NCBI GenBank assembly: GCA_020161845.1
Contig: JAIUNK010000019.1
Coordinates: 1 to 64,000 of the forward strand
DNA from: Actinomycetota bacterium
GTDB taxonomy: Bacteria; Actinomycetota; Actinomycetes; Actinomycetales; Dermatophilaceae
DNA length: 64,000 nt
Direction of reading: 5' to 3'
Part shown: one piece after another, positions 1,146-22,446 of the stretch
How the letters are laid out: each line of letters starts with the position of its first letter
Numbering within the stretch: the first letter of the stretch is position 1
Program-made: the position numbers and the translations under genes
The notes under the pieces: model-generated
Told to the model about the DNA's origin: nothing
Seen by the model: only the letters and a program-made list of their open reading frames with translations
Database searches by the model: none

Positions 1146-2441
1146 ATGAGGGCAGACACTGCACGTTTCGTCGTCGCGACGGATTGGTCGCAACCAAGGC
1201 ACATGGCCGCAGTCATGCATGCCTACTCGGAGATAGGGAACCGGGGCGCGGGCACTTCTCTGGTGATAGCAGTCCCTCACGAACCTGGCCCAGATGATGC
1301 TAGGCGCGTGAGAAAGATGTTGCAGCGCGCCCCGGGACAGGTTCAGGCCGAGGTATTCATCGAGGCCTTCGAGGAAGCGCGGGCAAAACCCTGCGCAGCG
1401 GCAATTGTCCCCACCGGGTCAGAGGACTTCCTTCTGTTGCAGGTCGCCTCTTGGGTGGCCAGACTGACTCGCTTGACACTGGTCGGTGAACATTCGGACG
1501 AATCGACCCTACTCGGCTCGTTGCTGGACTCATTTGAGGAGACATCGCGTAAGACGCTGCTGAGCGCTGAAAGTCCAAGTCACATTGAGCCCAGCTGGCA
1601 CGGAGTCTACGCAGGTCAAGGTCGGTTTATAGTCGCGCTGAAGACAGGTGGTAGGGCCTATCTTCCTGTCGGGGACCGCGCGACTGCGGTCAACATTCTG
1701 CAGACGGGTCTGTACGAGCCTGATCTGCAGGGGTATATACAACACAGCGTCCCGAGGGGAGGGCTCGTACTGGACGTCGGAGCAAATATCGGCCTCGTCA
1801 CGATCGCCCTAGCGCATGCCGTGGGCGCCGAGGGCCGGGTCATTGCGTTTGAACCCGTTCCTGCAAACATACAGTATTTACGGTGGAACGTTGAGACGAA
1901 TTGGCTCATGGACGTTGTAGACATCATCTCGAAGGCTGTTAGCGACGTCAACGGCCTCACAACCATGTCGATATCCGATGAGTGGAATGCGTTAGGATCC
2001 ATCACTAAGGGCGAAGTGGAGCTGGCGGGGAGACACGAAACTACTGGCCAGCGTCGGATTGACGTGGAGATGATTCGCTTGGACAGCTACTTTCCTCTAG
2101 ATGTTCACATTGATCTCGTCAAGATTGATGTTGAGGGGGCCGAGCACCTGGTCTTTAAGGGGATGGAGCGCCTCCTCGAAGGTGGCCGGATTGACAGGGT
2201 CGTCTTTGAGTGTGCGCGAGAGCATTTCGACCGTTCTCTCGTGGGACCAGAAAATGCTTGGGATGACTTCATGACTAAGTTACATCAGTATGAAGAGTCC
2301 GGCTGGACTTTCGGGGTGCCACATGAGGATGGAACGCTGTCCGAACTCACAGTGGCGGGCATAGCGGCTCGCGCAAACTTCTCGTCGATCGCCATGGAGA
2401 AACCTGGCCTGGGAACTCAGTGCAAAGAGTGGCCCGTGTGA
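1146..2441 (+). CDS. Two-domain protein: VVAT-type domain plus FkbM methyltransferase
   Basis: The protein has 431 residues; ATG 1146 follows GAGGAG by 5 bases. Residues about 7-115 form the domain shared with the genes at 8736, 19819 and 21745: FVVATDWSQ at the start, LVIAVPHEPGPDD as second strand, then an EAFEEA motif and a PTGSED turn. The C-terminal half is an FkbM-family SAM-dependent methyltransferase with VLDVGANIG near residue 208 and KIDVEGAE near 325. FkbM enzymes O-methylate sugars and other hydroxyls, so methylation of a filament glycan is a reasonable inference. It heads a lower-GC operon with the next three genes and lies downstream of the flagellar-type promoter at 354. Confidence 0.8.
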   Translation: MRADTARFVVATDWSQPRHMAAVMHAYSEIGNRGAGTSLVIAVPHEPGPDDARRVRKMLQRAPGQVQAEVFIEAFEEARAKPCAAAIVPTGSEDFLLLQVASWVARLTRLTLVGEHSDESTLLGSLLDSFEETSRKTLLSAESPSHIEPSWHGVYAGQGRFIVALKTGGRAYLPVGDRATAVNILQTGLYEPDLQGYIQHSVPRGGLVLDVGANIGLVTIALAHAVGAEGRVIAFEPVPANIQYLRWNVETNWLMDVVDIISKAVSDVNGLTTMSISDEWNALGSITKGEVELAGRHETTGQRRIDVEMIRLDSYFPLDVHIDLVKIDVEGAEHLVFKGMERLLEGGRIDRVVFECAREHFDRSLVGPENAWDDFMTKLHQYEESGWTFGVPHEDGTLSELTVAGIAARANFSSIAMEKPGLGTQCKEWPV

Positions 2442-2489
2442 GTAGCCATAGTGGCGCCTGAGAATGTTGACGTTTTTAAGGAGGACGGG

Positions 2490-3119
2490 GTGTCTGACGG
2501 CGTAGAGGCTCACGTGGCACACGTCTGGACAAGTGGCGAAGAAGTGGTCTGCGAGTTCCCTTCTGAGCTTGAGCTGGATGTAAGCATGCATCTTGCTGAG
2601 CCGCATCCTCGTGGACTGCTTGGCCTTCCCTACTGCCAAAACGTCCCAACTGAGGTGCAGACAGTTCGCTTGATTCGTAACGGCTTGTGCCTGCCCATCA
2701 ATTCGTTCGCCGGCGATGAAGTACTTTTGGCCGCGCCCGAATCAAAGCATGTTCAGCTTCTGGAGCGCATGGTTGCACCCGGGCTTGTCAGGGTCCTTCT
2801 GTCGGTCACGTCCGCGCTTATTGGATCGCGGGTGCTGGCGCGTAGCGATGTCGCAGAGTTGTTGATGCAGACTGTCGAGGTGCCACACGCCCTCCTGCTT
2901 GGTGACTATCCGAGAGAGTGGTGGGAGGACACTTTGTGTCGCCTTGACATGATCTGGCCATCGGCCACGGGAGCGCCAATGTCGCCTGAGAGCCCGGTTT
3001 TCCAGGGCGTGGCTACGTACCTCGCGCTTCGCGAGGTTGCTCGTCGCCGAATTGCCGAGCCGTTTCGAGTCCCACGTGAGCTGTCGCAAGCACCCGCAAC
3101 TCCGGGAGCCTACTCATGA
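2490..3119 (+). CDS. Unknown protein in the FkbM operon
   Basis: The frame is open from GTG 2451, but AAGGAGGA at 2478-2485 sits 4 bases before GTG 2490 and decides the start there, giving 209 residues. I recognise no family. The protein is acidic at the N-terminus, has a hydrophobic middle (LVRVLLSVTSALIG) that could be one buried helix, and has a Trp-containing segment (YPREWWEDTL) near residue 150. It overlaps the next gene by ATGA, which implies translational coupling. Operon context suggests a role in making or adding a filament modification, but no function can be assigned from sequence. Confidence 0.6.
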   Translation: MSDGVEAHVAHVWTSGEEVVCEFPSELELDVSMHLAEPHPRGLLGLPYCQNVPTEVQTVRLIRNGLCLPINSFAGDEVLLAAPESKHVQLLERMVAPGLVRVLLSVTSALIGSRVLARSDVAELLMQTVEVPHALLLGDYPREWWEDTLCRLDMIWPSATGAPMSPESPVFQGVATYLALREVARRRIAEPFRVPRELSQAPATPGAYS

Positions 3120-3946
3120 GCACGGCTACACCTGCAAAGCTGGAGACTCTGACGATTTGTCATCGCGCGGCTACTATTCCGCAGAAATGGGTTGGGAAGG
3201 AAATTGCGGTAGGAGGATATTCATCGGGCTCCTCGACGCATCTCTCTCGCTTAGCGCCTGGGTGGTACGCTCGTTACGATCATTCGCACAGCGCCGCGGC
3301 CCTTTTTGCGGCGCCCAGACTACTTCAAGGGATAGGGGAGGGTATCACTCATGTGCGGATGCAGCAATATCGAAAAGTCCTGAGTCATGTTGCCGTGGGA
3401 AGGCAGCATCGTGAGCTGCCCACGCTACGAGAAGTCATGCCTTCGCAGGCGGCGAGCTTGTCTGACACGGATCGTGCGCTCGCGCCAGGATGCGATTTTA
3501 TGGTCCCCCCCGCGTTGAGTTTTCGGAGGACAGTCCTCGCGCATTATGCGAGTTGTCATCTTCCTGTCGACTTCCTTGAGTACGCGGTAGCGGCCATCGA
3601 TGCGGGCGTTCTTGCCGAGAATGAGGTCGTAGATATGCTCCATGAAGACAGGCTGATCGCAGGCGCGCTGGAGCTGGGCATCTACCCATTGGAGTTCTTC
3701 GTAAGCGCCGTGAAGAGTCTAGAAGCTATCTCGCGCAGATTCATCGAGAGGGCAGATTCGAGGCTTGCCTCTTATGGAGCTGATCAGGCGCGCGCACTCT
3801 CATCTTGTGTAGAACGCGCCGGTTCCTACCTCGTACTGGCTGAGCTCGAGCGCCGTTTTGGAACGAATGTCCCGATTGGGACCACGGCTTGGATCGTCTG
3901 CATCACGGATAACGGGGGTGGCTATGTGCCTGGCCGTGCCGAGTGA
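3116..3946 (+). CDS. DUF4422-like possible glycosyltransferase, copy 1
   Basis: The protein has 276 residues; its start overlaps the upstream stop (ATGA) with GGAG 6 bases before. It is clearly paralogous to the next gene along the whole length: TICHR near the start, a P-x-x-W-V followed by EIAVG, HSAAALF, VRMQQYRKVLSH, LELGIYP-EFF and a C-terminal WIVC segment. The order of an early TICHR, an IxVG strand and a QYRK block loosely recalls DUF4422 glycosyltransferases, which carry a similar histidine, VG and HYRR pattern. The resemblance is weak and made by eye. The tandem copy and the FkbM neighbour support a sugar-related role. Confidence 0.55.
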   Translation: MSTATPAKLETLTICHRAATIPQKWVGKEIAVGGYSSGSSTHLSRLAPGWYARYDHSHSAAALFAAPRLLQGIGEGITHVRMQQYRKVLSHVAVGRQHRELPTLREVMPSQAASLSDTDRALAPGCDFMVPPALSFRRTVLAHYASCHLPVDFLEYAVAAIDAGVLAENEVVDMLHEDRLIAGALELGIYPLEFFVSAVKSLEAISRRFIERADSRLASYGADQARALSSCVERAGSYLVLAELERRFGTNVPIGTTAWIVCITDNGGGYVPGRAE

Positions 3947-4772
3947 ACGCTTGCCACTTACACCTGTGGTTTCATACACAATATGTCACCGTTCACCGAT
4001 CCTCCCGGACCAGTGGGTAGACGAGGAGATAGCGGTTGGCCCCCACAATACCGGCAGTCCTTTGCATATTTCTCGGCTCGTTCCGTTGTGGCACGAGAGA
4101 TATACGTACGCGCACAGTGCGGCTGCCCTATTTGGTGTCAATCGAGCCCTTGGCAGCCAGGCGCCCAAGGGCGGGCACGTCCGCATGCAGCAGTATCGCA
4201 AGGTTCTGTCGCATGAGCGCCTCGGAAAACCAGACACCTATCTGCCGTCCATGGGTGTGATCTCTGCCAGTGAGTCGGCTCGCCATGCCCATGTGGGTCT
4301 GTCGCTTGCTACGGGATGCGACTTTCTCGTACCGCGCCCAGTGAGATTTCAGCATTCCGTGCTCGAGCACTACGCTCGCAACCATCGGGTGCTTGACTTC
4401 ATTGACTTCGCGCGAGTGGCCCTCGAGTGTGGTGTACTTTCCGGGCAACAGGTTTCCATGATGATGTTGGAGAGAGTGTACTTCGCTGGTGTTCTGGAGT
4501 TGGGGATCTACCCTGTTGAGTTCTTCCAGCGGGCTTTGACGCAGATTGAGACGGTAGCCGACGAGTTCGCGATGAAGCATGCCGCGCGATTGACGAGCTA
4601 CGATGCGGAGCAGAGTCGGGCGCTTGCGTGGTGCGTAGAGCGGATGGGTTCTTTTCTGGTTCTTGAAGAGTTAAGGGAACGGTACGGCCGAGACGTTCCA
4701 GAGGGGACCTTCGGGTGGATTGTCTGTGTTGCGCCAGAGGGAGACGCGTACGTCCCCGGTAGCGGCGATTAG
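3924..4772 (+). CDS. DUF4422-like possible glycosyltransferase, copy 2
   Basis: The protein has 282 residues from ATG 3924, which overlaps the end of copy 1; the open frame extends further upstream but would overlap that gene deeply. It shares TICHR, EIAVG, YAHSAAALF, VRMQQYRKVLSH, GVLELGIYPVEFF and a WIVC tail with copy 1, so the pair arose by tandem duplication. The stop codon TAG at 4770-4772 lies inside the 8-bp target duplication of the ISL3 element, so the element landed right at the end of this gene without changing the protein. Any operon continuation is cut off here. Confidence 0.55.
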   Translation: MCLAVPSERLPLTPVVSYTICHRSPILPDQWVDEEIAVGPHNTGSPLHISRLVPLWHERYTYAHSAAALFGVNRALGSQAPKGGHVRMQQYRKVLSHERLGKPDTYLPSMGVISASESARHAHVGLSLATGCDFLVPRPVRFQHSVLEHYARNHRVLDFIDFARVALECGVLSGQQVSMMMLERVYFAGVLELGIYPVEFFQRALTQIETVADEFAMKHAARLTSYDAEQSRALAWCVERMGSFLVLEELRERYGRDVPEGTFGWIVCVAPEGDAYVPGSGD

Positions 4773-5071: not shown

Positions 5072-6834
5072 CCCGAGTTGGCTCACGTAGCGACTGATTT
5101 TCGCCGCTCGGGTCCGTGAGCTGGGGCGTTCTGGTCGGCGGGGTTCGTTTCGGGTCACTAATCGTAGGGTGTGGTGGTGGCTTTCATCCGGACGGTCCGC
5201 ACGGCTTCGGGCGCGACGGCGGTGCAGATCGTGGCCAAGGTGAAGGGCCGCAACCGGGTGTTGGAGCATGTCGGGTCGGCGCACACCGAACTGGACCTTG
5301 CGCTGCTGCAGCAGGCGGCCCGGGAACGGCTCGACGAAGTGGCTCCGCCACTGGACCTGCCGGTCGAGGTGCCTGTCCGCCCGGCACGGCTCCTGCCTGG
5401 GCCGGCCGAGGGGGTCCTGGACTGGTCCTCCCCGGCCGCGCTGGGCGAGCGTGACGGGCTGGTCGCGCCGGCGCGGATCCTGGCGACTGGCAGTGAGGTC
5501 CTGTATCGCGCGATCGGGACCGTGTACGAGGAGCTGGGGTTCGCCGCGGCGCTTGAGGATCCGGTGTTCGCTGACCTGGTCATCGCCCGCGTGGTCGAGC
5601 CCACCTCGCTACTGGACGCCGGCAGGGTCCTGATCGAGCTGGGGGCGCGGCCGGCCAGCTACGCGACGATGAAGCGGACCCTGGCCAGGGTCACCGGGCG
5701 GGACTACCGCGCCACAGTCGCATCCGCGTGTTTCGCGCACGCCACCAGCCATGGGGACCTCACCCTCGTCTTGTTCGACGTGACGACGCTGTACTTCGAG
5801 GCAGAGCACGAAGACGAGCTGCGCAAGGTTGGCTACTCCAAGGAGCGGCGCGTCGACCCCCAAGTCGTGGTCGGGCTTCTGGTCGACCGGACGGGTTTCC
5901 CGCTGGAGCTCACCTGCTGGGCGGGCAACAAGGCCGAGACCGCCACGTTGCTGCCCACGATCAGGGCGTTCCAGGAACGGCACGGGCTGGCCGACTTCGT
6001 CGTCGTCGCCGACGCCGGGATGCTCTCATCGTCGAATCTGAAGGCGCTCGACGAAGCCGGGATGAGGTTCATCGTGGGATCCCGCCAGGCCAAGGCCCCC
6101 GCCGATCTTGCCTCACACTTCCGCTGGCACGGGGACGCCTTGGTTGATGGGCAGCTCATCGACACCATCACGCCCCGGCACGCGGGCACTACCAGCGAAA
6201 ATGACGTGGCGAAGAAGGTCGAGCCGGTGTGGGACCCGGCCATGCATCCGAAGTCGTGGCGCGCCGTTTGGGCGTACTCGGCGAAGCGGGCCGCCCGGGA
6301 CGGGCGGACCCTGACCCTGCAGGAGAACCGCGCGAAGGCCGTCGTGGCGGGGGAACGCGCCGCCAGGACCCCGCGGTTCGTGACGGTCCACAAGGGCGAC
6401 GCCGTCCTGGACGAGAACGCCCTCGCGCGAGCGCGGCGGCTGGTCGGGTTGAAAGGCTACGTCAGCAACATCCCCCACACACTGATGCCCGCCGCCGAGG
6501 TCATCGCCTCCTACCACGACCTGTGGCACGTCGAGGCGTCGTTTCGCATGTCCAAGACCGATCTGCGGGCCCGGCCCATGTTCCACCACAACCGTGACGC
6601 GATCGAAGCCCACCTCACCATCGTCATGACCGCCCTCGCCCCTCGCCCGTGAGATCCAAAGCCGCACCGGGATCACGATCCGGCAGGTCAACCGGCAACT
6701 ACGGCCCCTGCGAAGCGCGACCATCCGGATCAACGGCGCCACCCACCGCATCCCACCCGAAATCCCCGAACCCCAGCAAGCCATCCTCAACGCACTGCAG
6801 AAACCGGGTCACTAACGATTTGAGCCAACTCAGG
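5072..6834. mobile_element. IS1634/IS1549-like insertion nested in the ISL3 element
   Basis: The element is 1763 bp with imperfect ends: CCCGAGTTGGCTCA at 5072-5085 against the inverse of 6821-6834, 13 of 14 matching. It carries one long transposase frame of the IS1634 branch of IS4-type DDE transposases. It is bounded by a 44-bp direct repeat. IS1549 of Mycobacterium smegmatis, a member of this family, is known for long and variable target duplications, which explains the 44 bp. Confidence 0.88.
5171..6815 (+). pseudogene. IS1634-family transposase with one frameshift near its end
   Basis: The frame opens at GTG 5171 and is intact for 493 residues (DVTTLYFEAE, GLLVDRTGFPLE, ADAGMLSSSN, WHVEASFRMSKTDL, motifs of IS1634-type DDE transposases). 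It stops at 6650-6652 after MTALAPRP. Adding one base shift near 6645-6650 lets it continue as REIQSRTGITIRQV to PQQAILNALQKPGH and TAA at 6813-6815, the expected family C-terminus. The loss removes about 55 residues after the catalytic Glu region, so activity is doubtful. The site is C-rich, so a read error is possible. Confidence 0.85.
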
Positions 6835-6878
6835 TGATCTGTTCGGCGATCACCTTCCCGGCGGCGTGGTCCTTCTGG
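6835..6878. repeat. Right copy of 44-bp direct repeat flanking the nested IS
   Basis: Exact copy of 5028-5071, immediately to the right of the nested IS1634-like element. The ISL3 transposase frame reads smoothly into it from the right. Confidence 0.92.
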
Positions 6879-8114: not shown

Positions 8115-8729
8115 TCAACCAGCGCTTGGGCGGCCGGCTGCGATCCAGCGGCCCGTGTAGCTCGTCGGGCTGGGGAACACATATTGTAGAAGGACCTCGT
8201 CAAGGGTCTCGTGATGCAGGGGCTTGGCGAAGACGCGACGACAGAAGGCCAGATCCTCGGCCATCGCTTCCGCGGCGAACCGGATCCCCCCAATCGCATG
8301 GCGCGACCAGGCCCGGGCCCACACGCAGCCATACGCGTGGGCGCGCCATCCGAAGGCCGAGGCGGGCTCCGAGCCCCACATGAAGCCGAAATGCAGGATG
8401 TCGGGGGACCCGGTCTCCTCGATCCGGTGCTCTAGTCGGGCGAGCGCGTCGTCGCGGACGTACCAGTCGTCGGCGTCGAGGAAAAGAACATAGTCACCGG
8501 TTGCGGCATCGAGTCCAGCGTTCCGAGCTAGCCCGGGATGACCCTTGCGGCTGACGATGACCGTCGCTCCCGCGCCTCGCGCGATCTCCGCAGTGTCATC
8601 TCGGCAGCAATCCGCGACGACGATGACGTCGTCGAACTCGCGCACCTGGGACGCGACCGTGTCGAGGGCTACGCCCAGGGTCGCCGCGGCGTCGTGAGCG
8701 GGGATGATGAGGGAGAAGCGGGCCGGCAT
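8115..8729 (-). CDS. Family 2 glycosyltransferase, short
   Basis: The protein has 204 residues, little more than the catalytic GT-A fold. It starts FSLIIPAHDAAATL, has VIVVADCCRDDT, GLARNAGLDAATGDYV and the metal-binding FLDADDWY motif near residue 80, and ends after an acidic AEDLAFCRRV segment that often holds the base. It would transfer a sugar from a nucleotide donor in the cytoplasm. It begins 6 bases after the stop of the methyltransferase-like gene at 8736, so both form one operon. Its stop lies 38 bases from the ISL3 element; the short C-terminus could be natural or slightly clipped by older rearrangement. Confidence 0.85.
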   Translation of the reverse strand: MPARFSLIIPAHDAAATLGVALDTVASQVREFDDVIVVADCCRDDTAEIARGAGATVIVSRKGHPGLARNAGLDAATGDYVLFLDADDWYVRDDALARLEHRIEETGSPDILHFGFMWGSEPASAFGWRAHAYGCVWARAWSRHAIGGIRFAAEAMAEDLAFCRRVFAKPLHHETLDEVLLQYVFPSPTSYTGRWIAAGRPSAG

Positions 8730-8735: not shown

Positions 8736-9998
8736 TCAGCGCCGGGTTGGCGTCGTGAGGACGACGTTCAGGTGGCCCTCATGGTGAAGGAGTACCTCGA
8801 GGGGGGCGGGGAGGGCCTGCCCTTCCTCGCCGATGGCAGCGAGTGTCCACCCGGCTTCGACGAGGCGGGTGAACTCCCCGGCGGCACGTGTCCAGTCGTC
8901 TGGTCGCGCCAGCGGAGCGACGCTGCACAGCAGGCGGCTGATTCGGTCGGCATCCAGCAGCGGGCGCAGCCGTGTGAGAGCGAGTCCAAGGCGGTGGGGT
9001 TGGCAGAGCATCGCGAGCTCGAATGGGTCCGCTGATTCCATCAGCGGCGCTAGATCTGTCGTCGGCACCTCGGTGTGCTCGGCTGCGGCCATGAGTGTCG
9101 TGGGATGCTGTCGTGAACCGTGCCAGGGGTTGCCTAAGGCAGGCCCGTACCAGCCGGGCGGCTCGTCGAACGGAGTCGGGCCACGGTGATCATCGAGCTG
9201 GGCCTCCACCAGCTCTACCGTCTTGTCGGCCCGATTGAGGATGAGGTTTTCGCGGAGGAACTGGAGATCCGACGGAGACGCTTCCAGCGCCACCACGCGG
9301 CCGGTCGGTCCGACCAGCTGGGCGACGAGTACCGTTTCCTCTCCGAAGCCGGCACCTATCTGTAGAACGCGTTGTCCAGGGAGGACCTTGGATCGGAGGT
9401 AGGCGCTTCGCTCCTCGTCAACCTCCCCTTGGAGAAGGAGACGAGGGGTGCGCGCGAGATCGTGGCTCGGGCAGACGAGGCTACCGGAGAAACTCGTTCG
9501 GACGAGCAGTCGACCGCCTCCGATGTATGTTCCCTGATAGGGCGGGCGCGATGCATGAAATGCCATGGCCGTGGTGAGTGCGTCGGCTTCGGCGCCGATG
9601 TCGGCGTAGCCATGAAGGGCTTTCTCTAGGCGTTCGGGCACCCCAGAGTTACGCGGTCGCTCATCTGCGGACTGGACCAACCGGCTGATTTCAGCGAGTT
9701 GCATCAGGAGGGCGTCGATGTCTCCTTGAGGGACCACGAAGCCGTCGTGGGGTTGCGAAAGCACTTGGCGGAATGACTCTAACGAGACGTTTAGCCGATC
9801 GCCGCCCGGGATGCCACGTCGAAGGGCATCTACCTTTTTTTCGTCGTTGTTGGACGGCGTCGAGGGAGTGGTGATCACCAGCAGGCCATCGTCAGCAATG
9901 GGAGCAACGAGGGTGGCAGCGGCCAGGACGATCGTGGGTCGGCTCCAGTTCGTTGCGACCACGAAGCGCCGCTTCGTAGGCCGAGAAGATTGAGTCAT
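8736..9998 (-). CDS. Two-domain protein: VVAT-type domain plus degenerate FkbM-like methyltransferase
   Basis: The protein has 420 residues; ATG 9998 follows GGAGG by 6 bases. Residues about 10-115 carry the shared domain: RFVVATNWSRP, LLVITTPSTP, LESFRQV, VVPQGDIDALL. From about residue 205 a Rossmann SAM-binding domain follows (VLQIGAGFG, GRVVALEASPSDL, LRENLILN), but the KIDVEG strand typical of FkbM enzymes is not visible, so the enzyme may have altered substrate use or be inactive. It has the same architecture as the gene at 1146. It leads a two-gene operon with the glycosyltransferase at 8115 and has a flagellar-type promoter at 10159-10185. Confidence 0.75.
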   Translation of the reverse strand: MTQSSRPTKRRFVVATNWSRPTIVLAAATLVAPIADDGLLVITTPSTPSNNDEKKVDALRRGIPGGDRLNVSLESFRQVLSQPHDGFVVPQGDIDALLMQLAEISRLVQSADERPRNSGVPERLEKALHGYADIGAEADALTTAMAFHASRPPYQGTYIGGGRLLVRTSFSGSLVCPSHDLARTPRLLLQGEVDEERSAYLRSKVLPGQRVLQIGAGFGEETVLVAQLVGPTGRVVALEASPSDLQFLRENLILNRADKTVELVEAQLDDHRGPTPFDEPPGWYGPALGNPWHGSRQHPTTLMAAAEHTEVPTTDLAPLMESADPFELAMLCQPHRLGLALTRLRPLLDADRISRLLCSVAPLARPDDWTRAAGEFTRLVEAGWTLAAIGEEGQALPAPLEVLLHHEGHLNVVLTTPTRR

Positions 9999-10158: not shown

Positions 10159-10185
10159 CTATCGGCCGCTGGATCTCGGTTGTGA
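10159..10185 (-). promoter_or_regulatory. Sigma-28-like promoter for the 9998-8115 operon
   Basis: On the minus strand TCAC (10185-10182), 15 bases, then GCCGATAG (10166-10159). The -10 box is identical to that of flgK. The predicted transcript has a leader of about 150 bases before ATG 9998. Confidence 0.5.
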
Positions 10186-11292: not shown

Positions 11293-12623
11293 CCCAGGCG
11301 AGCGAAGCATTACTTGACGTTGCGATGATCGTGAAGGACGAGGAGGGCTACCTCCCCACGTGCTTGGAGTCGCTCGAACAGTTGCGGCCGATCCTAGGGG
11401 TTGTCCACATCTACGACACGGGTTCGTCCGACCGCACCGTGGAGATTGCGCGCGCTTGGGGGGCGGAGGTCACCGAGGGCTATTGGGACGATGATTTCGC
11501 TCGGGCTCGAAATGCAGCAATGGCCCTCAGCTCAGCCCCCTGGGTGCTGATTGTGGATGCCGATGAAAGGGTTTCGGTTGAAACGGATTCTTTGGAGTCC
11601 GAATTAGTCTCGGCTTCCACTGAGGTCGACGTGGATGCGTTTGAGTCATCAGTGCTGCTCCGTTCTGATGCGAGCTATTCTTCGGCGACCTCGATTCGCA
11701 TCTTCAGGCGCGCAAGGGTCTGCTACCGAAACCGGGTTCATGAACGGCCCGTCCGCATGGATGGTGGTGACCCATGTCTGAGACGATTGCCATCTTCAAC
11801 CGTTTCTATTGTGCATATTGGCTACACCAGCGCCGCCTTCTCGGGGAAACTCTCTCGCAATCTTAATATCCTAGAAGTCGAAGTGGAAGCTTGTCGGGCC
11901 AATGAAAGTCAGGCTCAGCTCGCCGAGGCGCTGCTGAATCGTGGGCGATCCCTCGCCGGAGTCGGCGACGTACGTGCGGCCGAACGGGACTTCGAAGAGA
12001 TGCGGAAGCTGGACTGTCACCCAAAATTTCGCCTGCTCGGGGGTGAACGCCTGGCTCAACTGTTGTTAGATCAGGGGCGCTGGGATGAGGTCGAACCCCT
12101 TCTCCAGGAGCTTCGCCAGGAGGGCCAAGACAGGGATATGACCGCCTGGCTCTGGGCTCGCCTGGCCATTGGCCGGGGGATGCACGATAGGGCACTTCCG
12201 CTGCTGCGGCTGGTAAATCGCCCCAAGTCCGCCGTGGGGATGGTGGATTCCTGGGCGCCCGTCCTCAGGGCGCGAGTGCAGGCGGCGACCATGGTAGGTG
12301 AGTACGAGGAAGCGCTCGCTGCGGCAATCCCGCTGCTAGCTAAGCACGGGGGAGGGGCTGGGCTCGGTCCGTTGGTGGTGGCCTTGTGGGCAGACCGGCC
12401 AACCGAGGCGCTCGCCCGCCTTTTCGCGGAGTTCGGGCCGGAGCACGCGGTGGGGGTCGCCGCCGAGATGGAGCTAGCTGGGGAGCCCGGACCGCAGGTC
12501 GCGTCCTCATTGAGGCAAATGATCGGTCTGGGCACCGACTGGCAGCACCAGCCCTCTGGTTCGGTGGCCGTCAGTCGCGCTCAGGGGTCGTCCGGTGGCG
12601 CCACCGAGGACGTGGAACCGTGA
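11289..12623 (+). CDS. GT2 glycosyltransferase with TPR-like C-terminus, copy 1
   Basis: The protein has 444 residues. GTG 11289 overlaps the upstream stop. The N-terminal 250 residues are a GT2 catalytic domain: VAMIVKDEE, VHIYDTGSSDRT near 42, WDDDFARARN and the metal site VDADE near 90. This set is like SunS-type and related transferases that act on proteins or build antenna glycans. The remaining 190 residues form pairs of Ala/Leu-rich helices resembling TPR repeats, suited to bind a protein partner. It is the close tandem paralogue of the next gene. Flagellin is the nearest plausible acceptor. Confidence 0.85.
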   Translation: MTQASEALLDVAMIVKDEEGYLPTCLESLEQLRPILGVVHIYDTGSSDRTVEIARAWGAEVTEGYWDDDFARARNAAMALSSAPWVLIVDADERVSVETDSLESELVSASTEVDVDAFESSVLLRSDASYSSATSIRIFRRARVCYRNRVHERPVRMDGGDPCLRRLPSSTVSIVHIGYTSAAFSGKLSRNLNILEVEVEACRANESQAQLAEALLNRGRSLAGVGDVRAAERDFEEMRKLDCHPKFRLLGGERLAQLLLDQGRWDEVEPLLQELRQEGQDRDMTAWLWARLAIGRGMHDRALPLLRLVNRPKSAVGMVDSWAPVLRARVQAATMVGEYEEALAAAIPLLAKHGGGAGLGPLVVALWADRPTEALARLFAEFGPEHAVGVAAEMELAGEPGPQVASSLRQMIGLGTDWQHQPSGSVAVSRAQGSSGGATEDVEP

Positions 12624-13882
12624 CGCCCCAAGCCCTGCTGGATGTGGCGATGATCGTGAAGAGCGAGGAAGCCTACCTGCCCGCATGCCTGGCGTCCCTC
12701 GAACAGTTGCGACCGATCCTGGGAGTTGTCCACATCTACGACACGGGGTCGTCCGATCGCACCGTGGAGATTGCGCGCACCTGGGGGGCGAAGGTCACAG
12801 AGGGCTACTGGGACGATGACTTCGCGCGCGCCCGCAATGCTTCGCTGACATTCGGGTCGGCGCCGTGGATCCTCTGGACTGATGCGGACGACGTAGTGCA
12901 GGCCAACGTCTGTGCCCTCGCGGCGCGTCTGCGTGACGAGCTCGGGGGGGCGGTTCAAGCATTCAGTTCCTTACTCGTGGTCGACGGGCACGGTGGAACG
13001 CTGACTGCCCATTCGATCCGGGTCATGCGGCGTGGGTCGACCTGCTTTGAGAATCGCGTCCACGAGCGCGTGGTGCTGAGCAGTGGGGGGCTGGCTTCCT
13101 GCGCCCAGCTATCTCCCGACGTACTGACCACGGTGCACACCGGCTACACGGCGGAGGCGCATGCGGGCAAGGTCGCCCGCAACCTTGCCCTGCTGGAAGG
13201 GGAGCTCCAAGAGGCGCGCCGCCACGGCGGACCTCACCTGACGGAAGTGCTCTGGAATAGGGCCCGCACCCTCATGGGCGCGAACCGCTTCGAGGAGGCG
13301 ATCGACGATCTCGTCGAGGCTCGGCGCCACGTCGGGGGGCTGCGAGTGTTCCGTCTCGAGGCTGGAGAGCTCCTCGCGATGCTGTATCTCGAGACGAGTC
13401 GCTACGACGACGCAGAGGTTGTCCTGCAAGAGCTTCGCCAGGAGGGGCAGGATCCGGAGATGACCGCTTGGCTGTGGGGGAAGTTAGCACTCGGCAAGGG
13501 CGAACCACGCGAGGCGCTGACCCTGCTGCGCCTCATCAATCGTCCGAAGTCGGGAGCAGGTCGCTTGGACAGCTGGGTGCCGGTGCTGGCGGCCCGTGCT
13601 CAGGCCGCAGCCCTCGCTGGAGAGTACGACGAGTCGCTCGCCGCCGCTCTTCCCCTGCTTGCCAAGCACGGCGCAGGCGGCGGGCTTGGGCAACTGATCC
13701 TCGCGATGTGGGGCAGTCGCCCCGATGAGTCGCTCGCGATGCTCCTCGCCGAGTTCGGGTCTGCTCATGCCGCCGCAGTAGGGGATGAGCTTTGTCAGGC
13801 GGGAGCGCGGGGGGAGCACGTGAATCTGCTCTACCGCGAACGGCTCAGTATGGCATCGGGCTGTGCCGTGGTGGCGAGCTGA
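12620..13882 (+). CDS. GT2 glycosyltransferase with TPR-like C-terminus, copy 2
   Basis: The protein has 420 residues; GTG 12620 overlaps the stop of copy 1. The first 90 residues nearly repeat copy 1 (EQLRPILGVVHIYDTGSSDRT, WDDDFARARN), with high identity even at the DNA level, so the duplication is fairly recent or kept alike by gene conversion. The metal site reads TDADD instead of VDADE. Helical repeats follow with the shared segments LLLRLINRPKS-like and ELRQEGQDP. It ends 81 bases before the fliC promoter, directly linking this operon to flagellin. Confidence 0.85.
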   Translation: MTPQALLDVAMIVKSEEAYLPACLASLEQLRPILGVVHIYDTGSSDRTVEIARTWGAKVTEGYWDDDFARARNASLTFGSAPWILWTDADDVVQANVCALAARLRDELGGAVQAFSSLLVVDGHGGTLTAHSIRVMRRGSTCFENRVHERVVLSSGGLASCAQLSPDVLTTVHTGYTAEAHAGKVARNLALLEGELQEARRHGGPHLTEVLWNRARTLMGANRFEEAIDDLVEARRHVGGLRVFRLEAGELLAMLYLETSRYDDAEVVLQELRQEGQDPEMTAWLWGKLALGKGEPREALTLLRLINRPKSGAGRLDSWVPVLAARAQAAALAGEYDESLAAALPLLAKHGAGGGLGQLILAMWGSRPDESLAMLLAEFGSAHAAAVGDELCQAGARGEHVNLLYRERLSMASGCAVVAS

Positions 13883-13962: not shown

Positions 13963-13989
13963 TCAGTTTTGCGACGAGGGTACCGATAG
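13963..13989 (+). promoter_or_regulatory. Sigma-28-like fliC promoter
   Basis: TCAG at 13963-13966, 15 bases, ACCGATAG at 13982-13989. FliC is the classic late sigma-28 target, which anchors the motif found across the window. ATG lies about 105 bases downstream. Confidence 0.7.
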
Positions 13990-14094: not shown

Positions 14095-14916
14095 ATGGGT
14101 CTGCAGATCAACACCAACATCGGCGCTCTGAACGCTTACCGGAACCTGTCCGGTACTCAGGGTGCGATGCAGTCCAGCCTGGAGAAGCTGTCCTCCGGTC
14201 TGCGTATCAACCGCGCTGCTGACGACGCTGCCGGCCTCGCGATCAGCGAGAAGCTGCGTGGACAGGTCAACGGTCTCAACCAGGCGTCCCGCAATGCGCA
14301 GGATGGCATCTCGATGGTTCAGACGGCTGAGGGTGCCCTCGATGAGGTCCACTCGATGCTGCAGCGCATGCGTACGCTCGCGGTTCAGGCCTCGAACGGC
14401 ACCAACTCCACCGCGAACCTGGGCCAGATTCAGTCTGAGATCACCCAGCTCACGACGGAGATCGGTGAGATCGCCAAGCGCACCAAGTTCAACGGTCTGG
14501 ACCTGTTCACCACGGCGACGACCACCCTGCAGGTGGGCGCGAACGCCAGCGACACGATGACCTTCGCGGGTCAGGCGCTGACCTCCGCCGCTGTCGGTGG
14601 CACCAGCATCAGCGCTGTGGACGTCACCACGGCGACGGGCGCGAACGGTGCGATCACCACGCTGGACAATGCGATCGATGGCATCGCCTCTCAGCGCGCG
14701 AGCCTCGGTGCGATCCAGAACCGCCTCGAGCACACCATCAAGAACCTCGGTGTGTCCGCGGAGAACCTGGCCGCGTCGGAGAGCCGCGTTCGCGACGCCG
14801 ACATGGCCAAGGAAATGACGCAGTTCAGCCGCAACCAGGTCCTGCAGCAGGCCGGCATCTCGATGCTGGCTCAGGCCAACCAGGCCCCGCAGTCGGTCCT
14901 CAAGCTCCTGGGCTGA
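14095..14916 (+). CDS. fliC: Flagellin
   Basis: The protein has 273 residues; ATG 14095 follows GAAGGAG. It has the conserved N-terminus MGLQINTNIGALNAYRNL with SLEKLSSGLRINRAADDAAG, and the C-terminus ASESRVRDADMAKEM to LAQANQAPQSVLKLLG, which form the D0/D1 coiled coils of the filament. Only a short Thr/Ala/Ser-rich middle of about 70 residues separates them, so the surface D2/D3 domains are nearly absent. Ser and Thr in that middle are possible sites of O-linked modification by the adjacent glycosyltransferases. Own promoter upstream and strong hairpin downstream indicate a single-gene, highly expressed unit. Confidence 0.97.
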   Translation: MGLQINTNIGALNAYRNLSGTQGAMQSSLEKLSSGLRINRAADDAAGLAISEKLRGQVNGLNQASRNAQDGISMVQTAEGALDEVHSMLQRMRTLAVQASNGTNSTANLGQIQSEITQLTTEIGEIAKRTKFNGLDLFTTATTTLQVGANASDTMTFAGQALTSAAVGGTSISAVDVTTATGANGAITTLDNAIDGIASQRASLGAIQNRLEHTIKNLGVSAENLAASESRVRDADMAKEMTQFSRNQVLQQAGISMLAQANQAPQSVLKLLG

Positions 14917-16373: not shown

Positions 16374-16757
16374 ATGACGACCGCGGCCCAACTCCGCAAC
16401 CGGTATGCCCAGGAATCGGTGAGCACCGCCACCCCCGGGCAGCTCCTCGTGATGCTGTATGACCGGCTGAGCAAGGACCTGATCACAGCGGAGCGGGCCG
16501 TGGTCGCGCATGACGTCCCCACGGCGCACACGAACCTCGTGCATGCGCAGGAGATCATCACCGAGCTTGCGGCGACCCTCCAGATCGATGCCTGGGAGGG
16601 CGGACCCAACCTGCTCGCCCTCTACGAATGGTGCCTGATTGAGCTTTTCCAGGCGAACATTTACAAGGACGCCGCGCGCATCCACACGGTGCGTGAGGTC
16701 ATCGAGCCTTTGCGGGATGCATGGACACAGGCTGCCAGGCAGGTCGAAGGCCGATGA
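16374..16757 (+). CDS. fliS: Flagellin export chaperone
   Basis: The protein has 127 residues and is helical. It carries the FliS signature NRYAQESVSTATPGQLLVMLYD near the start and LLALYEWCLIELFQANIYKD later. FliS binds the C-terminus of flagellin and delivers it to the export gate. Starts 17 bases after fliD and overlaps the next gene by ATGA, the usual fliD-fliS-fliT order. Confidence 0.94.
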   Translation: MTTAAQLRNRYAQESVSTATPGQLLVMLYDRLSKDLITAERAVVAHDVPTAHTNLVHAQEIITELAATLQIDAWEGGPNLLALYEWCLIELFQANIYKDAARIHTVREVIEPLRDAWTQAARQVEGR

Positions 16758-17044
16758 ACGCTTGGGAGCAGGCGCTGACGCGGATGGAAGACGACCTCGA
16801 CGCTCACGAGCTGACATTGCGCACCGGTGACGTCCGCGACGTCATGCCTTTCGTGGCCCCGGAGGGGCTGGGTCCGATGCCGACCCATCTTGCGGATCGA
16901 GTGCAGAGTCTGATCCATCGGACCAGACTCCTCGCCACATTCGTGCAGTACGAACTTGTCGCCACCGACGCGGATCTCCGCTTCGAGCGGCGCGAAGTGA
17001 AACACGCCGGCGCCCAGGCGCTCTATCTGGACCGCGCGGTCTGA
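16754..17044 (+). CDS. FliT-like small flagellar chaperone
   Basis: The protein has 96 residues and overlaps fliS by ATGA. It is small, acidic and mostly helical (WEQALTRMEDDLDAHELTL, LIHRTRLLATFVQYEL), with no clear homology that I can name. Its place directly after fliS is where fliT, the FliD chaperone, normally sits, so a chaperone role is inferred from position and size only. A strong hairpin follows 22 bases later. Confidence 0.6.
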   Translation: MNAWEQALTRMEDDLDAHELTLRTGDVRDVMPFVAPEGLGPMPTHLADRVQSLIHRTRLLATFVQYELVATDADLRFERREVKHAGAQALYLDRAV

Positions 17045-17101: not shown

Positions 17102-17102
17102 G

Positions 17103-19761: not shown

Positions 19762-19818
19762 GTGAATGACACCACGACGCCAGTGCCGCTTTCGGCACCG
19801 TTCCAGTGAGGACACCGC

Positions 19819-20388
19819 ATGCCCGACAACGAGCCGATGAGCTGGGCCGACATCGCCGCGCAGATCCGCGGAATCGGGGAGCCGGGTCAGTCCGATGTGC
19901 AGACTACGACCCGCACTCCCTTCCGGATCGTCGTTGCCACCGACTTTTCTCAAGCTGCGACGACCCTGAGCGTCCTCAAGGCATACGCCGCTATGTTCCC
20001 CGCCGACGCCCCGGTCGAGCTCGTCCTCGCCGTTCCGCATGAGCCCACCGACGAGGACGTGTCCTGCGCTCAAGTTCTGCTCGAGGGGCTCGATGTGGAC
20101 ACCGCCATCGCTCCGGTGCGCGTGGAGTCGTTCGCCGAGGCTGCAGGCAAGAGCGCCCACGCCGCCGTCGTGAGCAATGGTGACCTGCAGGTGCTCGTCA
20201 TGGAGCTCGGCGCGGCTTTCACCGCCATGCACCGACTGGCAACCGTTGTGGCCGACGCGGATTTGCTCGCTCGGGAGCCCGAGCCCGTAGATGTCCCTAA
20301 CGCCGCGTTACAGCGCCGATTCGTCTCGTTCTGCGAGGTCACATCTGCCGCCGATCCTGCTGCGGGGGTATTCGCCGAATCACTCTGA
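19819..20388 (+). CDS. Stand-alone VVAT-type domain protein, copy 1
   Basis: The protein has 189 residues from ATG 19819. After a 40-residue leader it shows the shared domain: FRIVVATDFSQAATTLSVLK, VELVLAVPHEPTDED, VRVESFAEA, VVSNGDLQVLVMELG. No signal peptide, membrane span or second domain is seen. The alternation of strand and helix suggests a Rossmann-like half, similar in outline to one lobe of GT-B glycosyltransferases, but no nucleotide-sugar motif is visible. It has its own flagellar-type promoter, sits just after flgL and ends at a bidirectional terminator. Function is unknown; a role in filament modification is inferred from company. Confidence 0.7.
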   Translation: MPDNEPMSWADIAAQIRGIGEPGQSDVQTTTRTPFRIVVATDFSQAATTLSVLKAYAAMFPADAPVELVLAVPHEPTDEDVSCAQVLLEGLDVDTAIAPVRVESFAEAAGKSAHAAVVSNGDLQVLVMELGAAFTAMHRLATVVADADLLAREPEPVDVPNAALQRRFVSFCEVTSAADPAAGVFAESL

Positions 20389-20402
20389 TCCCCGTCCTAC
20401 CT

Positions 20403-20430: not shown

Positions 20431-20487
20431 GGGCCCTTTGGGACAAGGGGTTCAGGCGGTCGGTGTCTCTCCCTGTGTGGTGGGGGT

Positions 20488-21588
20488 TCAGGCGGTGAGC
20501 GCGGCGAGGTCGTCTGCGTACCGGGATTCGCCGTAGAGGTCGACCAGCGTACGAAGTGTGGCGACGACCTCGCCCGCATCCATTGCCTGCAGCGCGGCCA
20601 AGCGGCGAAGATCGAGAACCTCAAGGTCTGCGGCACGCTCGCGGATATCGGGGCTAGGTGAGCCGAGCCAGGGCGCGGTGAGTCTCAGGACGTCAGTCCA
20701 GCCGCCCCCGCGATGGCACAGGCGCGCTGCAACGTCCCGCAATGTGCGCTCGTCGCCACCGGCTGATCGAAGACCTTCCAGGTGTCGGGCAGCCTCGCTC
20801 ACCCGGTCGGACGCGATGAGCGTCGTCGTGATGTCGACGGCGGTGAGGCGCCACGAAAGGGTGCCGACGGCGAAGCCCGCCAAGGCCTCCGCGTAGAGGA
20901 CGAGTGCGTCGTCGGTACGCCCGAGGGCCGCCAAGGATCGCGCAGCGTGGCGTGCCGATCGGATGACGTCGGTTGGGTCGCGGCGCGCCCGGGCGGCCGA
21001 GAGGGCGCCCAGAGCCGTGCCGGCATTGCGTTCAGCCTTGGCGGCCCGGAGCCGCTCGGTGGCGTAGCCATAGTGCCGCAGTGAAGCAACGCTCTCGCCG
21101 ATCGTGCCGATCCGACAGGTTCTGCCATCCAGTCGCGTGGGGATCTCGTGGATCGCACGGGCGAAACGCACCTCGTCGCGCCATACGAGTTTTGCATATG
21201 GCGTTCGGCCTGCGATCCGTCCTTCCTCGTCGAGATGTTGTTGGACCAGGCTGAAGACGTCGCAACCGGTGCCCACGAGGTGTCCGGCGAGAGCGGCGGG
21301 ATCACCAACGTACTCCTCGTCCGCGTCGATCGTCAGCGCCCACGCGGCGCTGGACATGGCGAGGCTGGCGTTGCGCGCACGTGCGAAGTCGTCATCCCAA
21401 TAGCCTTCAGCGACATGGCAACCCGCCGCCCTGGCGATGGCGATGGTGTCGTCGGTGGACCCCGTGTCGTAGACGTGGACTTCTCCGAGCAGAGGTCGAA
21501 GCGCCTCCAGAGAGGCGAGGCAACGCGGCAGGTTGAGCGCTTCGTCCTTGACGATGAGACACGCATCGAGGATTGGCGGGGAGTCCAT
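20488..21588 (-). CDS. GT2 glycosyltransferase with helical C-terminus, copy 3
   Basis: The protein has 366 residues from ATG 21588 (MDSPPILDACLIVKDE). An upstream ATG at 21654 keeps the frame open but lies inside the predicted -10 box, so the shorter start is preferred. The GT2 core has VHVYDTGSTDDT, GYWDDDFARARNASLAM and IDADEEY, clearly paralogous to the genes at 11289 and 12620 but more divergent. The C-terminal 160 residues are Ala/Leu-rich helices like TPR repeats. It stands on the other side of the filament genes and has its own flagellar-type promoter, so all three paralogues look co-regulated. Confidence 0.85.
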   Translation of the reverse strand: MDSPPILDACLIVKDEALNLPRCLASLEALRPLLGEVHVYDTGSTDDTIAIARAAGCHVAEGYWDDDFARARNASLAMSSAAWALTIDADEEYVGDPAALAGHLVGTGCDVFSLVQQHLDEEGRIAGRTPYAKLVWRDEVRFARAIHEIPTRLDGRTCRIGTIGESVASLRHYGYATERLRAAKAERNAGTALGALSAARARRDPTDVIRSARHAARSLAALGRTDDALVLYAEALAGFAVGTLSWRLTAVDITTTLIASDRVSEAARHLEGLRSAGGDERTLRDVAARLCHRGGGWTDVLRLTAPWLGSPSPDIRERAADLEVLDLRRLAALQAMDAGEVVATLRTLVDLYGESRYADDLAALTA

Positions 21589-21650
21589 GGAGTGCACCTG
21601 TCTGCTGCTGATCGCCCCGGCGTCGACGTGCCGGCTTGCCGTCGCCTTCT

Positions 21651-21677
21651 CCATCGGCCGAGGCTGTCGCGCGATGA
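21651..21677 (-). promoter_or_regulatory. Sigma-28-like promoter for GT2 copy 3
   Basis: On the minus strand TCAT (21677-21674), 15 bases, GCCGATGG (21658-21651). It stands back to back with the plus-strand promoter at 21700. The -35 box departs from TCAG in its last base. Confidence 0.4.
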
Positions 21678-21699
21678 GGTCCCTCCTTCGCCAGCCTGC

Positions 21700-21727
21700 T
21701 CAGAAGCGTTACCCCGTAAGCCGATAG
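21700..21727 (+). promoter_or_regulatory. Sigma-28-like promoter for stand-alone VVAT gene 2
   Basis: TCAG at 21700-21703, 16 bases, GCCGATAG at 21720-21727. The spacer is one base longer than in the other sites. Confidence 0.5.
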
Positions 21728-21744
21728 GGCAACGTGAGGACAAT

Positions 21745-22446
21745 GTGTGGAGCACGACCTGCTGCTCGGCCCTGGCAGGTGGGCGTGTGAGTCCATCGCC
21801 GTCGAGCGATGAGGTCAACTTCGTCGCAGGGCAGGACCAGGCGGTGCGGCGGATCGTCGGTACGTCGGGTGCCCGCCCACTAGGGTCGCCGGACGCCGAC
21901 CGGCACTCGGCGTACGGGCAGGCTCCGGCGTACGGCCTGGACAGCGCTGACCCCCGCCCGGGCGCCGTCGAGGTGCCGGCCTTCCGCGTGGTGGTGGCCA
22001 CCGACTTCGCCGCCGAATCGCTGTCCGCCCGAACCGCGCCGCTGTCTGTGCTCAAGGCTTTTGCGCTCATGTTCTCGGCCGGGCAACCCGTGAACCTGAT
22101 CTTCGCCGTCGACCACGAGGCCGCAGAGGCGGATGCTCTGGCCGCGCAGCAGCTCCTGGCGCAACTCCCGGGGGACCGACCGCTGGCGGGCATCGCGATC
22201 GAGTCGTTCGACGAGGCGCCGGCTCAGCCGACGTACGTCTCGCTCATCCCGCAAGGCGATCCCGCCGCGCTGATCACCGACCTGGCGAAGACCCTGACGG
22301 CGATGCACCTGCTCGCCGAGACTCTGGCTCATCCAGGCCGGCTGCGGATCGCTCTCGTCCATCAGCACCTCATCGCGCGCGTCCGCGACCGCCGCCTGGC
22401 CGACCGCCTGACCAGCTATCGCGAGGTCGACCTTCCCGGGTTGTAG
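21745..22446 (+). CDS. Stand-alone VVAT-type domain protein, copy 2
   Basis: The protein has 233 residues if started at GTG 21745 (GAGGA 4 bases upstream), or 219 from GTG 21787. A Ser/Pro/Gly-rich leader of 60-80 residues precedes the shared domain: FRVVVATDFAAE, APLSVLKAFALMF, VNLIFAVDHEAAE, IAIESFDEAP, LIPQGDPAALITDLAKTL. It is most like the protein at 19819 (SVLKA-A-MF, TAMH-LA). No transmembrane or catalytic motif is visible. It is divergent from the third GT2 gene and behind its own flagellar-type promoter. Role unknown, inferred to act with the glycosyltransferases. Confidence 0.68.
   Translation: MWSTTCCSALAGGRVSPSPSSDEVNFVAGQDQAVRRIVGTSGARPLGSPDADRHSAYGQAPAYGLDSADPRPGAVEVPAFRVVVATDFAAESLSARTAPLSVLKAFALMFSAGQPVNLIFAVDHEAAEADALAAQQLLAQLPGDRPLAGIAIESFDEAPAQPTYVSLIPQGDPAALITDLAKTLTAMHLLAETLAHPGRLRIALVHQHLIARVRDRRLADRLTSYREVDLPGL

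What the first reader, a model, noticed from the sequence alone, without database searches (positions are those of the whole stretch)
1146..22446. Undescribed domain shared by four proteins in the filament island
Proteins at 1146, 8736, 19819 and 21745 share a 110-130 residue block: VVAT followed by D/N, W/F, S/A; a long helix; a strand reading AVPHEP or similar; ESF/EAF; and P-x-GD/ED before a final helix. Two copies sit in front of SAM methyltransferase domains; two stand alone. The strand-helix order resembles one Rossmann lobe of a GT-B glycosyltransferase, but I see no sugar-nucleotide motif. Finding four copies within 21 kb, all near fliC and all behind flagellar-type promoters, suggests a new module of filament modification, perhaps a recognition or scaffold unit or a reduced transferase.
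Basis: partly seen in the sequence, partly recalled or inferred. Interest (0 to 1): 0.87.

Follow-up and report, generated by a model that had tools for sequence, protein, structure and literature searches.

The report
Accessory domain for bacterial flagellin sugars
Four neighbouring genes share a small protein domain that none of the family libraries searched names; near and distant relatives of it in two groups of actinobacteria mostly lie beside flagellar filament genes, paired with or built into enzymes that attach sugars or methyl groups, so it probably helps those enzymes find the flagellum protein or each other.

Summary
The shared block is real: its four copies are the only ones found in the genome at E up to 1, with no Pfam, NCBIfam or PDB-sequence hit beyond sub-threshold noise. 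In its family (Dermatophilaceae) 10 of 186 genomes carry it (18 copies); all 10 are among the 29 with FlgL and the 16 with a GT2-TPR glycosyltransferase. A stand-alone copy lies directly upstream of GT2-TPR in 7 of 10 genomes, overlapping by 4 nt in three, or after flgL in five. It is also fused to FkbM methyltransferase and GT32-like domains. A distant form (profile E 1.7e-6) sits in multi-domain glycosyltransferases and methyltransferases of Solirubrobacterales; of 11 genomes hit in 232, query included, six have fliC within 10.4 kb. The model is Rossmann-like; GT-B or Usp kinship is not shown. Best reading: a non-catalytic module docking flagellin-modifying enzymes to a common acceptor or partner; docking is inferred. 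"Filament modification module" is supported; "all behind flagellar promoters" holds for two of four.

The parts
1146..2441 (+). Copy 1: shared domain (about 1161-1505) fused to an FkbM-type methyltransferase
   Evidence: (TIGR01444 96.7 bits)
8736..9998 (-). Copy 2: shared domain (about 9657-9971) fused to a diverged FkbM-like methyltransferase
   Evidence: (TIGR01444 39 bits)
19819..20388 (+). Copy 3: stand-alone domain (about 19921-20256), directly after flgL
   Evidence: structure model
21745..22446 (+). Copy 4: stand-alone domain (about 21982-22347); start codon uncertain (21745 or 21787)
10159..10185 (-). Sigma-28-like promoter match in front of copy 2
   Evidence: loose pattern chosen after looking; no evidence of function
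21700..21727 (+). Sigma-28-like promoter match in front of copy 4
   Evidence: loose pattern chosen after looking; no evidence of function
13963..13989 (+). Sigma-28-like promoter match in front of fliC
   Evidence: loose pattern chosen after looking; no evidence of function
14107..14916 (+). Flagellin FliC, 269 aa
   Evidence: Flagellin_N 159.3 bits, Flagellin_C 102.9 bits
15010..16356 (+). FliD filament cap
   Evidence: best FliD model 116.9 bits, below its curated cut-off of 387
16374..16757 (+). FliS
   Evidence: PF02561, 114.5 bits
17216..18712 (+). FlgK
   Evidence: TIGR02492, 304.5 bits
18731..19663 (+). FlgL
   Evidence: TIGR02550, 211 bits
10618..11292 (+). Glycosyltransferase with Gly_transf_sug (GT32-like) domain
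   Evidence: PF04488, 28.9 bits
11301..12623 (+). GT2-TPR glycosyltransferase A (start approximate)
12620..13882 (+). GT2-TPR glycosyltransferase B
   Evidence: PF00535, TPR
20488..21654 (-). GT2-TPR glycosyltransferase C, between copies 3 and 4 (its TPR hits are below cut-off)
8115..8729 (-). GT2 glycosyltransferase, next to copy 2
   Evidence: PF00535, 75.9 bits

Best explanation
The block is an accessory, non-catalytic Rossmann-like domain of about 110 residues that serves the enzymes which glycosylate and methylate flagellin (or its glycan) in the cytoplasm before export. It works either in cis, fused to an FkbM methyltransferase or a glycosyltransferase, or in trans, as a separate small subunit made together with the GT2-TPR glycosyltransferase. 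Because the same module goes with enzymes of unlike chemistry (GT2, GT4, GT32-like, GT92-like, FkbM), the most likely shared function is docking: binding the common acceptor (flagellin or the growing glycan) or holding the enzymes together. Shown by tool results: a shared domain absent from the libraries searched; linkage to flagellar filament genes in two actinobacterial classes; fusion to or pairing with glycosyltransferases and methyltransferases; a confident model with alternating strands and helices and conserved residues at strand ends. Inferred: that it is non-catalytic, that it binds flagellin, glycan or partner enzymes, and that flagellin is the modified substrate.
For: Co-occurrence: domain in 10 of 186 family genomes, all 10 within the 29 that have FlgL and within the 16 that have a GT2-TPR relative; hypergeometric 1.9e-9 and 7.5e-13, not corrected for relatedness. 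Position: 16 of 18 copies lie on the same stretch as fliC or flgL; the other two are on an 8.2-kb contig with GT2-TPR, GT2 and FkbM genes. Gene order domain - GT2-TPR in 7 of 10 genomes, spacing -4 nt (three genomes), 11 nt (two), 17 nt and 86 nt; in an eighth a transposase lies between them. After flgL in five genomes. Fusions: FkbM in the window and in a Dermatophilus assembly (L038/L035), GT32-like in L040. Distant form: (11 of 232 genomes, query included); hhalign 89.9%, E 1.7e-6, score 40.1 against a maximum of 17.1 in 50 column shuffles. A profile of the distant form alone hits 7 ORFs in 20 stretches (window included), all 7 being copies of the domain; it misses 12 of the 19 ORFs that the combined profile finds there, three of the window's four among them. 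ORFs with the distant form: 18 of 21 scanned, out of 23, carry a glycosyltransferase or methyltransferase domain. fliC 4.9-10.4 kb from six of the 11 hits. Model mean pLDDT 92.4, strands 3-8, 34-40, 73-77, 88-90; several strongly conserved residues (T9 D10 W11; P41 H42 P44; S77 F78; P92 G94 D95) follow strand ends, while others (R4 V7 A8 L36) lie in strands. dN/dS: 0.149/1.74 and 0.016/0.094 for two ortholog pairs; a third pair had dN 0.42 and no computable dS.
Against: No binding or activity was measured, and no flagellin of these organisms is shown to be glycosylated here. Nineteen of the 29 flagellated family genomes lack the domain; four of these (G001, G002, G116, G117) have a GT2-TPR relative, and no copy was seen in the three whose loci were read (G001, G002, G116), so it is not obligatory. 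Conserved loops could equally be a catalytic or nucleotide site. Five of the 11 distant hits had no fliC seen: contigs of 5.3, 7.1, 30 and 50 kb, and one doubtful hit with an internal stop on a contig that has flgK and flgL. The loop residues conserved in Dermatophilaceae are mostly not conserved in the distant form.
Confidence: 0.55

Rival explanations
1. It is a reduced GT-B lobe that still takes part in catalysis or donor binding, completing the glycosyltransferase next to it.
For: Strand-helix order fits. Profile comparison with 15 GT4 C-lobes of the same genome (15 of 17 hits) gives score 22.6 against a maximum of 15.7 in 30 shuffles and aligns the P-x-GD stretch with the last strand-helix of the GT4 lobe. 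VldE, a pseudo-glycosyltransferase, is among the Foldseek hits, and a Gap1-3 complex chain.
Against: HH probability only 7.9%, and lower in three of the five other settings tried (scores 6.7, 14.0, 17.6); a reversed profile already scores 17.8. The distant form gives 0.25% against GT4. No Pfam GT hit in the block, and PF13692 with 17 hits in the genome finds none in this contig. In the distant form the GT4 domain sits elsewhere in the same ORF, not over the module. No Foldseek hit below E 0.001.
Confidence: 0.2
2. It is a divergent universal stress protein-like nucleotide-binding domain that controls the modification enzymes.
For: The first strand and loop (VVATDFS) look like Usp (recalled); the best Foldseek hit of the domain-only model is a Usp (5ahw_A, E 0.0057, rank 1); one of 8 members reaches Pfam Usp at E 0.097.
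Against: TM only 0.37; the whole-protein model ranks malate dehydrogenase first (E 0.0025). Profile comparison 0.8% probability, score 15.9 against a shuffle maximum of 14.7, and 0.06% for the distant form. PF00582 with 11 hits in the genome finds none in this contig. Only four strands, and by reading no phosphate-binding glycine motif (motif recalled).
Confidence: 0.1
3. It is a flagellar export or assembly factor (chaperone-like) that acts on FlgL or flagellin, and its closeness to modification enzymes is secondary.
For: Directly after flgL in five genomes, a place where other bacteria have small regulators (recalled).
Against: Overlap or tight spacing with GT2-TPR in other genomes, fusions to FkbM and GT32-like domains, and the distant form inside glycosyltransferase proteins; the flagellin chaperone FliS is present as well.
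Confidence: 0.1

Closest known systems
Flagellin glycosylation islands (for example Geobacillus, PMC5109656)
   Same: Glycosyltransferases of families GT2 and GT4 and FkbM methyltransferases encoded in the island (passages of PMC5109656 seen).
   Different: The passages seen do not mention such a domain, and the terms tetratricopeptide and TPR do not occur in that paper's main text. Here a shared unnamed domain links the enzymes.
GtfA/GtfB and DUF1975 of the serine-rich repeat glycoprotein system
   Different: No sequence match of the block to such a Pfam family; different substrate and export route. Analogy only.
Gap1/Asp1 of the accessory Sec system
   Same: A chain of the Gap1-3 complex (6oyc_A) has the highest query TM-score among the 50 rows shown for the domain-only model (0.52, E 0.082, rank 28).
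   Different: Not significant by Foldseek E-value; the profile search of PDB sequences found nothing.
GT4 (GT-B) C-terminal lobe, PF13692
   Same: Strand-helix order; weak profile similarity.
   Different: No Pfam match in the block, shorter, no donor motif that I can see, and the distant form lies beside GT4 domains, not over them.
Universal stress protein, PF00582
   Same: Similar first strand and loop (recalled); first Foldseek rank of the domain-only model.
   Different: Profile similarity not significant; four strands only.

Membership tests
GT-B glycosyltransferase C-lobe (PF13692/PF00534) | Match to the family profile | tested here: not met
   No such hit in the block for four window proteins (E up to 1) or 8 aligned members (E up to 10); PF13692 finds 17 places in the genome, none in this contig
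GT-B glycosyltransferase C-lobe (PF13692/PF00534) | Profile-profile similarity | tested here: inconclusive
   7.9% probability, score 22.6 against shuffle maximum 15.7 (30 shuffles) and 17.8 for the reversed profile
GT-B glycosyltransferase C-lobe (PF13692/PF00534) | GT-B fold | tested here: inconclusive
   Alternating strands and helices, four strands; no PDB hit below E 0.001
GT-B glycosyltransferase C-lobe (PF13692/PF00534) | Sugar-nucleotide transfer | not testable with these tools
   Needs an enzyme assay
Universal stress protein (PF00582) | Match to the family profile | tested here: not met
   One of 8 members, at E 0.097 only; PF00582 finds 11 places in the genome, none in this contig
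Universal stress protein (PF00582) | Usp fold | tested here: inconclusive
   5ahw_A rank 1, E 0.0057, TMq 0.37
DUF1975 / GtfB | Match to the family profile | tested here: not met
   No Pfam hit of the block to such a family; that Pfam holds DUF1975 is recalled
DUF1975 / GtfB | Binds acceptor and partner glycosyltransferase | not testable with these tools
   Needs binding experiments
Flagellin modification island | Glycosyltransferase and methyltransferase genes beside fliC | tested here: met
   GT2, GT2-TPR, GT32-like and FkbM genes within 13 kb of fliC
Flagellin modification island | Flagellin is glycosylated | not testable with these tools
   Needs mass spectrometry

The most novel reading that the evidence does not exclude
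Actinobacteria in two classes use one family of small Rossmann-like modules as an address label for flagellin modification: the enzymes of the pathway carry the module or are partnered with it in trans, so that sugar and methyl transfer are carried out by an assembly gathered on flagellin before export, a counterpart of GtfA/GtfB that arose independently.
Probability: 0.3. Interest if true: 0.8.

Novelty: new variant of a known kind. Interest (0 to 1): 0.68.

Why it matters
How flagellin-modifying enzymes pick flagellin out of the cytoplasm is largely open in Gram-positive bacteria (recalled, not searched for). A shared module that goes with enzymes of different chemistry, and that in some species is a separate subunit encoded directly before the glycosyltransferase, gives a direct handle: delete one small gene, or move one module, and ask whether the enzyme still finds flagellin. 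It also gives a marker for finding flagellin-modification loci in actinobacteria, and a domain family that could be added to the libraries.

Tried and rejected
GT-B lobe kinship: tested by Pfam, profile comparison with shuffles, and two Foldseek searches; not established. Usp kinship: same tests, weaker in the profile comparison. For these comparisons I used 15 of 17 GT4 hits and 10 of 11 Usp hits of the genome. PDB sequence search with the profile: 0 hits up to E 10. PHROGs: only hits of single members, best E 0.018. Plasmid search with copy 1: in the 20 rows shown of 186 records the match begins at residue 109 or later, that is in the linker and methyltransferase part; the distant form gave no match. 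Weak hits dropped: G013, G029 and G036 (E 0.001-0.006); the G013 locus had no gene like those of the window, the other two were not read. From the distant-form set I left out of the profile L095 (reads by eye like a GT-B lobe of its own), L096 (internal stop) and L091 (the L040 place), and kept 8 of 11. Wider samples: order 2 of 396 genomes (the window's own and G038), phylum 1 of 396 (its own), class of the Solirubrobacterales assembly 2 of 299; only 11 to 15 candidates per genome were scored there, and the genome-contig scan used two short patterns and confirmed 5 of 41 stretches, so absence elsewhere is weakly tested. Promoters: a stricter scan with a recalled consensus gave nothing in front of the four genes. 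Paper searches: flagellin glycosylation with actinobacteria and TPR, with Solirubrobacter, and with accessory domain returned 0 papers each; the other listings gave no paper whose title or abstract start points to such a domain; the library holds open-access papers only. A lead from memory, not tested: some cyanobacterial FkbM and TPR proteins seem to carry a similar stretch.
Full report
What was checked. The four proteins named in the finding were translated from the window and aligned. They share about 110 residues. A search of the whole genome (4.39 Mb, 82 contigs; the window is the first 64 kb of the 84-kb contig C78) with the 189-residue stand-alone protein returned four places and no others at E up to 1: itself and the three other copies named in the finding. 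The block has only sub-threshold hits in Pfam and NCBIfam (for example SpdB, E 0.014), no match to any PDB sequence by profile up to E 10, and only weak single-member PHROGs hits. The flanks are as described: FkbM-type methyltransferase behind copy 1, a diverged one behind copy 2 (39 bits, without the DVEG motif seen in copy 1), and copies 3 and 4 alone.

Surroundings. The window holds a flagellar and chemotaxis cluster. Between 8 and 22.5 kb lie GT2, GT32-like and two GT2-TPR glycosyltransferase genes, fliC (14107-14916), fliD, fliS, a small gene without a Pfam hit above cut-off (16754-17044), flgK, flgL, copy 3, a third GT2-TPR gene on the other strand, and copy 4. Transposase genes (5171-6652, 6830-8032) separate copy 1 from the rest.

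Distribution in the same family. A profile of 8 copies, taken from four of these genomes, found the domain in 10 of 186 genomes, 18 copies in all. FlgL was found in 29 of 186 (27 above the curated cut-off), and all 10 domain genomes are among them; one, G053, is known only by a FlgL fragment below the cut-off. A GT2-TPR relative (E up to 1e-10) was found in 16 of 186, again including all 10. Treating genomes as independent, which they are not, the probabilities are 1.9e-9 and 7.5e-13. Nineteen of the 29 flagellated genomes lack the domain. Sixteen of 18 copies share a stretch with fliC or flgL; two are on an 8.2-kb contig with GT2-TPR, GT2 and FkbM genes only.

Gene order. In 7 of 10 genomes a stand-alone copy is directly upstream of a GT2-TPR gene on the same strand, with a 4-nt overlap in G066, G016 and G052, 11 nt in G015 and G094, 17 nt in G038 and 86 nt in G053 (start codons are my choice among the candidates listed). 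In G115 a transposase lies between the two. In five genomes, the window's included, a copy follows flgL, in G053 two in tandem. A tree of 19 copies groups the flgL-linked copies with copies 3 and 4 of the window and one GT2-TPR-linked copy (97/96), and the two FkbM-fused copies together (91/79, not starred); 7 of 16 inner branches are open and copy 2 sits on a long branch. A second FkbM fusion is in the Dermatophilus assembly (L038/L035). In a Solirubrobacterales assembly the domain follows a GT32-like domain in one ORF (L040; PF04488 43.6 bits; domain 114.1 bits with a profile that did not contain it).

A distant form in another class. Searching 299 genomes of the class of that assembly with 19 copies gave, besides it, one weak hit (22.8 bits, E 3.4e-4) between a GT4 and a GT2 domain. 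Used as a query in 232 genomes of its order, that segment found 11 genomes including its own and, at 45% identity over query residues 4-71, the L040 domain. Eight of these segments form a profile that matches the 19-copy profile with 89.9% probability, E 1.7e-6, score 40.1; 50 column shuffles reach at most 17.1. In the other direction, a profile of those eight alone hits 7 ORFs at E up to 0.05 in 20 stretches (the window and 19 loci), all 7 being copies of the domain; the combined profile finds 19 ORFs there (two of them the same Agilicoccus gene), so 12 are missed, three of the window's four among them. The surroundings of the 11 hits were read: fliC lies 6.9 kb (G1161, the query's own genome), 8.9 kb (G1258), 10.4 kb (G1205), 6.0 kb (G1093), 9.0 kb (G1087) and 4.9 kb (G1338) away. 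It was not seen for G933 (5.3-kb contig), G1323 (7.1-kb contig), G1271 (30-kb contig) and G1337 (50-kb contig); G1324 has flgK and flgL on the contig but the hit has an internal stop and is doubtful. The loci hold further matches of the distant form, 23 ORFs in all in the stretches searched, the eight of the profile included. Of these I scanned 21 with Pfam: 18 have a glycosyltransferase (GT2, GT4, GT32-like, GT92-like) or methyltransferase (FkbM or other) domain outside the module; the three without are two ORFs cut at a contig or stretch end and one 450-residue ORF. Two weak ones (L099 at 363, L114 at 4445) were not scanned.

Structure. Two AlphaFold2 models (copy 3 whole, pLDDT 86.7; the Mobilicoccus domain, pLDDT 92.4) agree on alternating strands and helices with four strands and a long helix after the last strand. 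Foldseek gives no PDB hit below E 0.001; the lists mix malate and lactate dehydrogenases (best E 0.0025), Usp (best E 0.0057), mannosyltransferases, VldE and a Gap1-3 complex chain. I therefore call the fold Rossmann-like and leave its kinship open; I had no coordinates, so the order of strands in the sheet was not checked. Several strongly conserved residues (T9 D10 W11, P41 H42 P44, S77 F78, P92 G94 D95 in the Mobilicoccus numbering) follow the ends of the strands, where such folds usually bind something (general knowledge); others (R4, V7, A8, L36) lie in strands and D48 near a helix start. Three ortholog pairs: dN 0.149 and dS 1.74; dN 0.016 and dS 0.094; dN 0.42 with dS not computable.

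Promoters. A recalled sigma-28 consensus gave no site in front of the four genes. A looser pattern, chosen after reading the upstream sequences, has 6 sites in the window against 1.45 expected: in front of copy 2, fliC, copy 4, the cheX gene and the cheA gene, and one inside the end of flgK. Copies 1 and 3 have none. Among the 16 other loci scanned, a site directly in front of a domain gene was seen only in Agilicoccus.

Interpretation. A module found with GT2, GT4, GT32-like, GT92-like and FkbM enzymes is unlikely to owe its presence to one chemistry; what these enzymes share is place, the flagellin locus. The simplest reading is a docking module for a common acceptor or partner. The nearest precedent is GtfA/GtfB, where a shared domain (DUF1975) contacts the acceptor and the partner (passages of PMC6973325). 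FkbM and GT2/GT4 genes in flagellin islands are known from Geobacillus (passages of PMC5109656). Docking, the identity of the substrate and lack of catalysis are inferred, not shown.

Limits. The wider searches scored 11 to 24 candidates per genome, so the real range of the family is probably larger. A resemblance to stretches of cyanobacterial FkbM and TPR proteins is recalled and was not tested. If it holds, the module would be a general partner of such enzymes, of which the flagellar use in actinobacteria is one branch.

Noticed in passing
22548-23329: MazE-like antitoxin gene followed by a PIN-domain gene (toxin-antitoxin-like pair) between copy 4 and the chemotaxis genes.
   Followed up: partly
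5171-8032: DDE transposase gene (5171-6652) and, on the minus strand, an ORF (6830-8032) whose last third matches an ISL3 transposase and whose rest looks out of frame; they split the glycan island.
   Followed up: partly
3116-4772: Two tandem genes that look like paralogs, without a Pfam match, near the FkbM fusion of copy 1.
   Followed up: no
8736-9998: The methyltransferase half of copy 2 keeps a SAM-loop-like stretch but lacks the DVEG motif of copy 1, so it may be inactive.
   Followed up: partly
55595-59907: Genes for a nickel-dependent hydrogenase with an NADH-dehydrogenase-like subunit, on the minus strand.
   Followed up: partly
L013, L053, L046: ORFs of 1143-1190 residues that hold at least two GT2-TPR-like modules in a row, overlapping the domain gene by 4 nt.
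   Followed up: partly
L097-L109: Solirubrobacterales flagellar loci hold long ORFs with several glycosyltransferase domains near fliC.
   Followed up: partly
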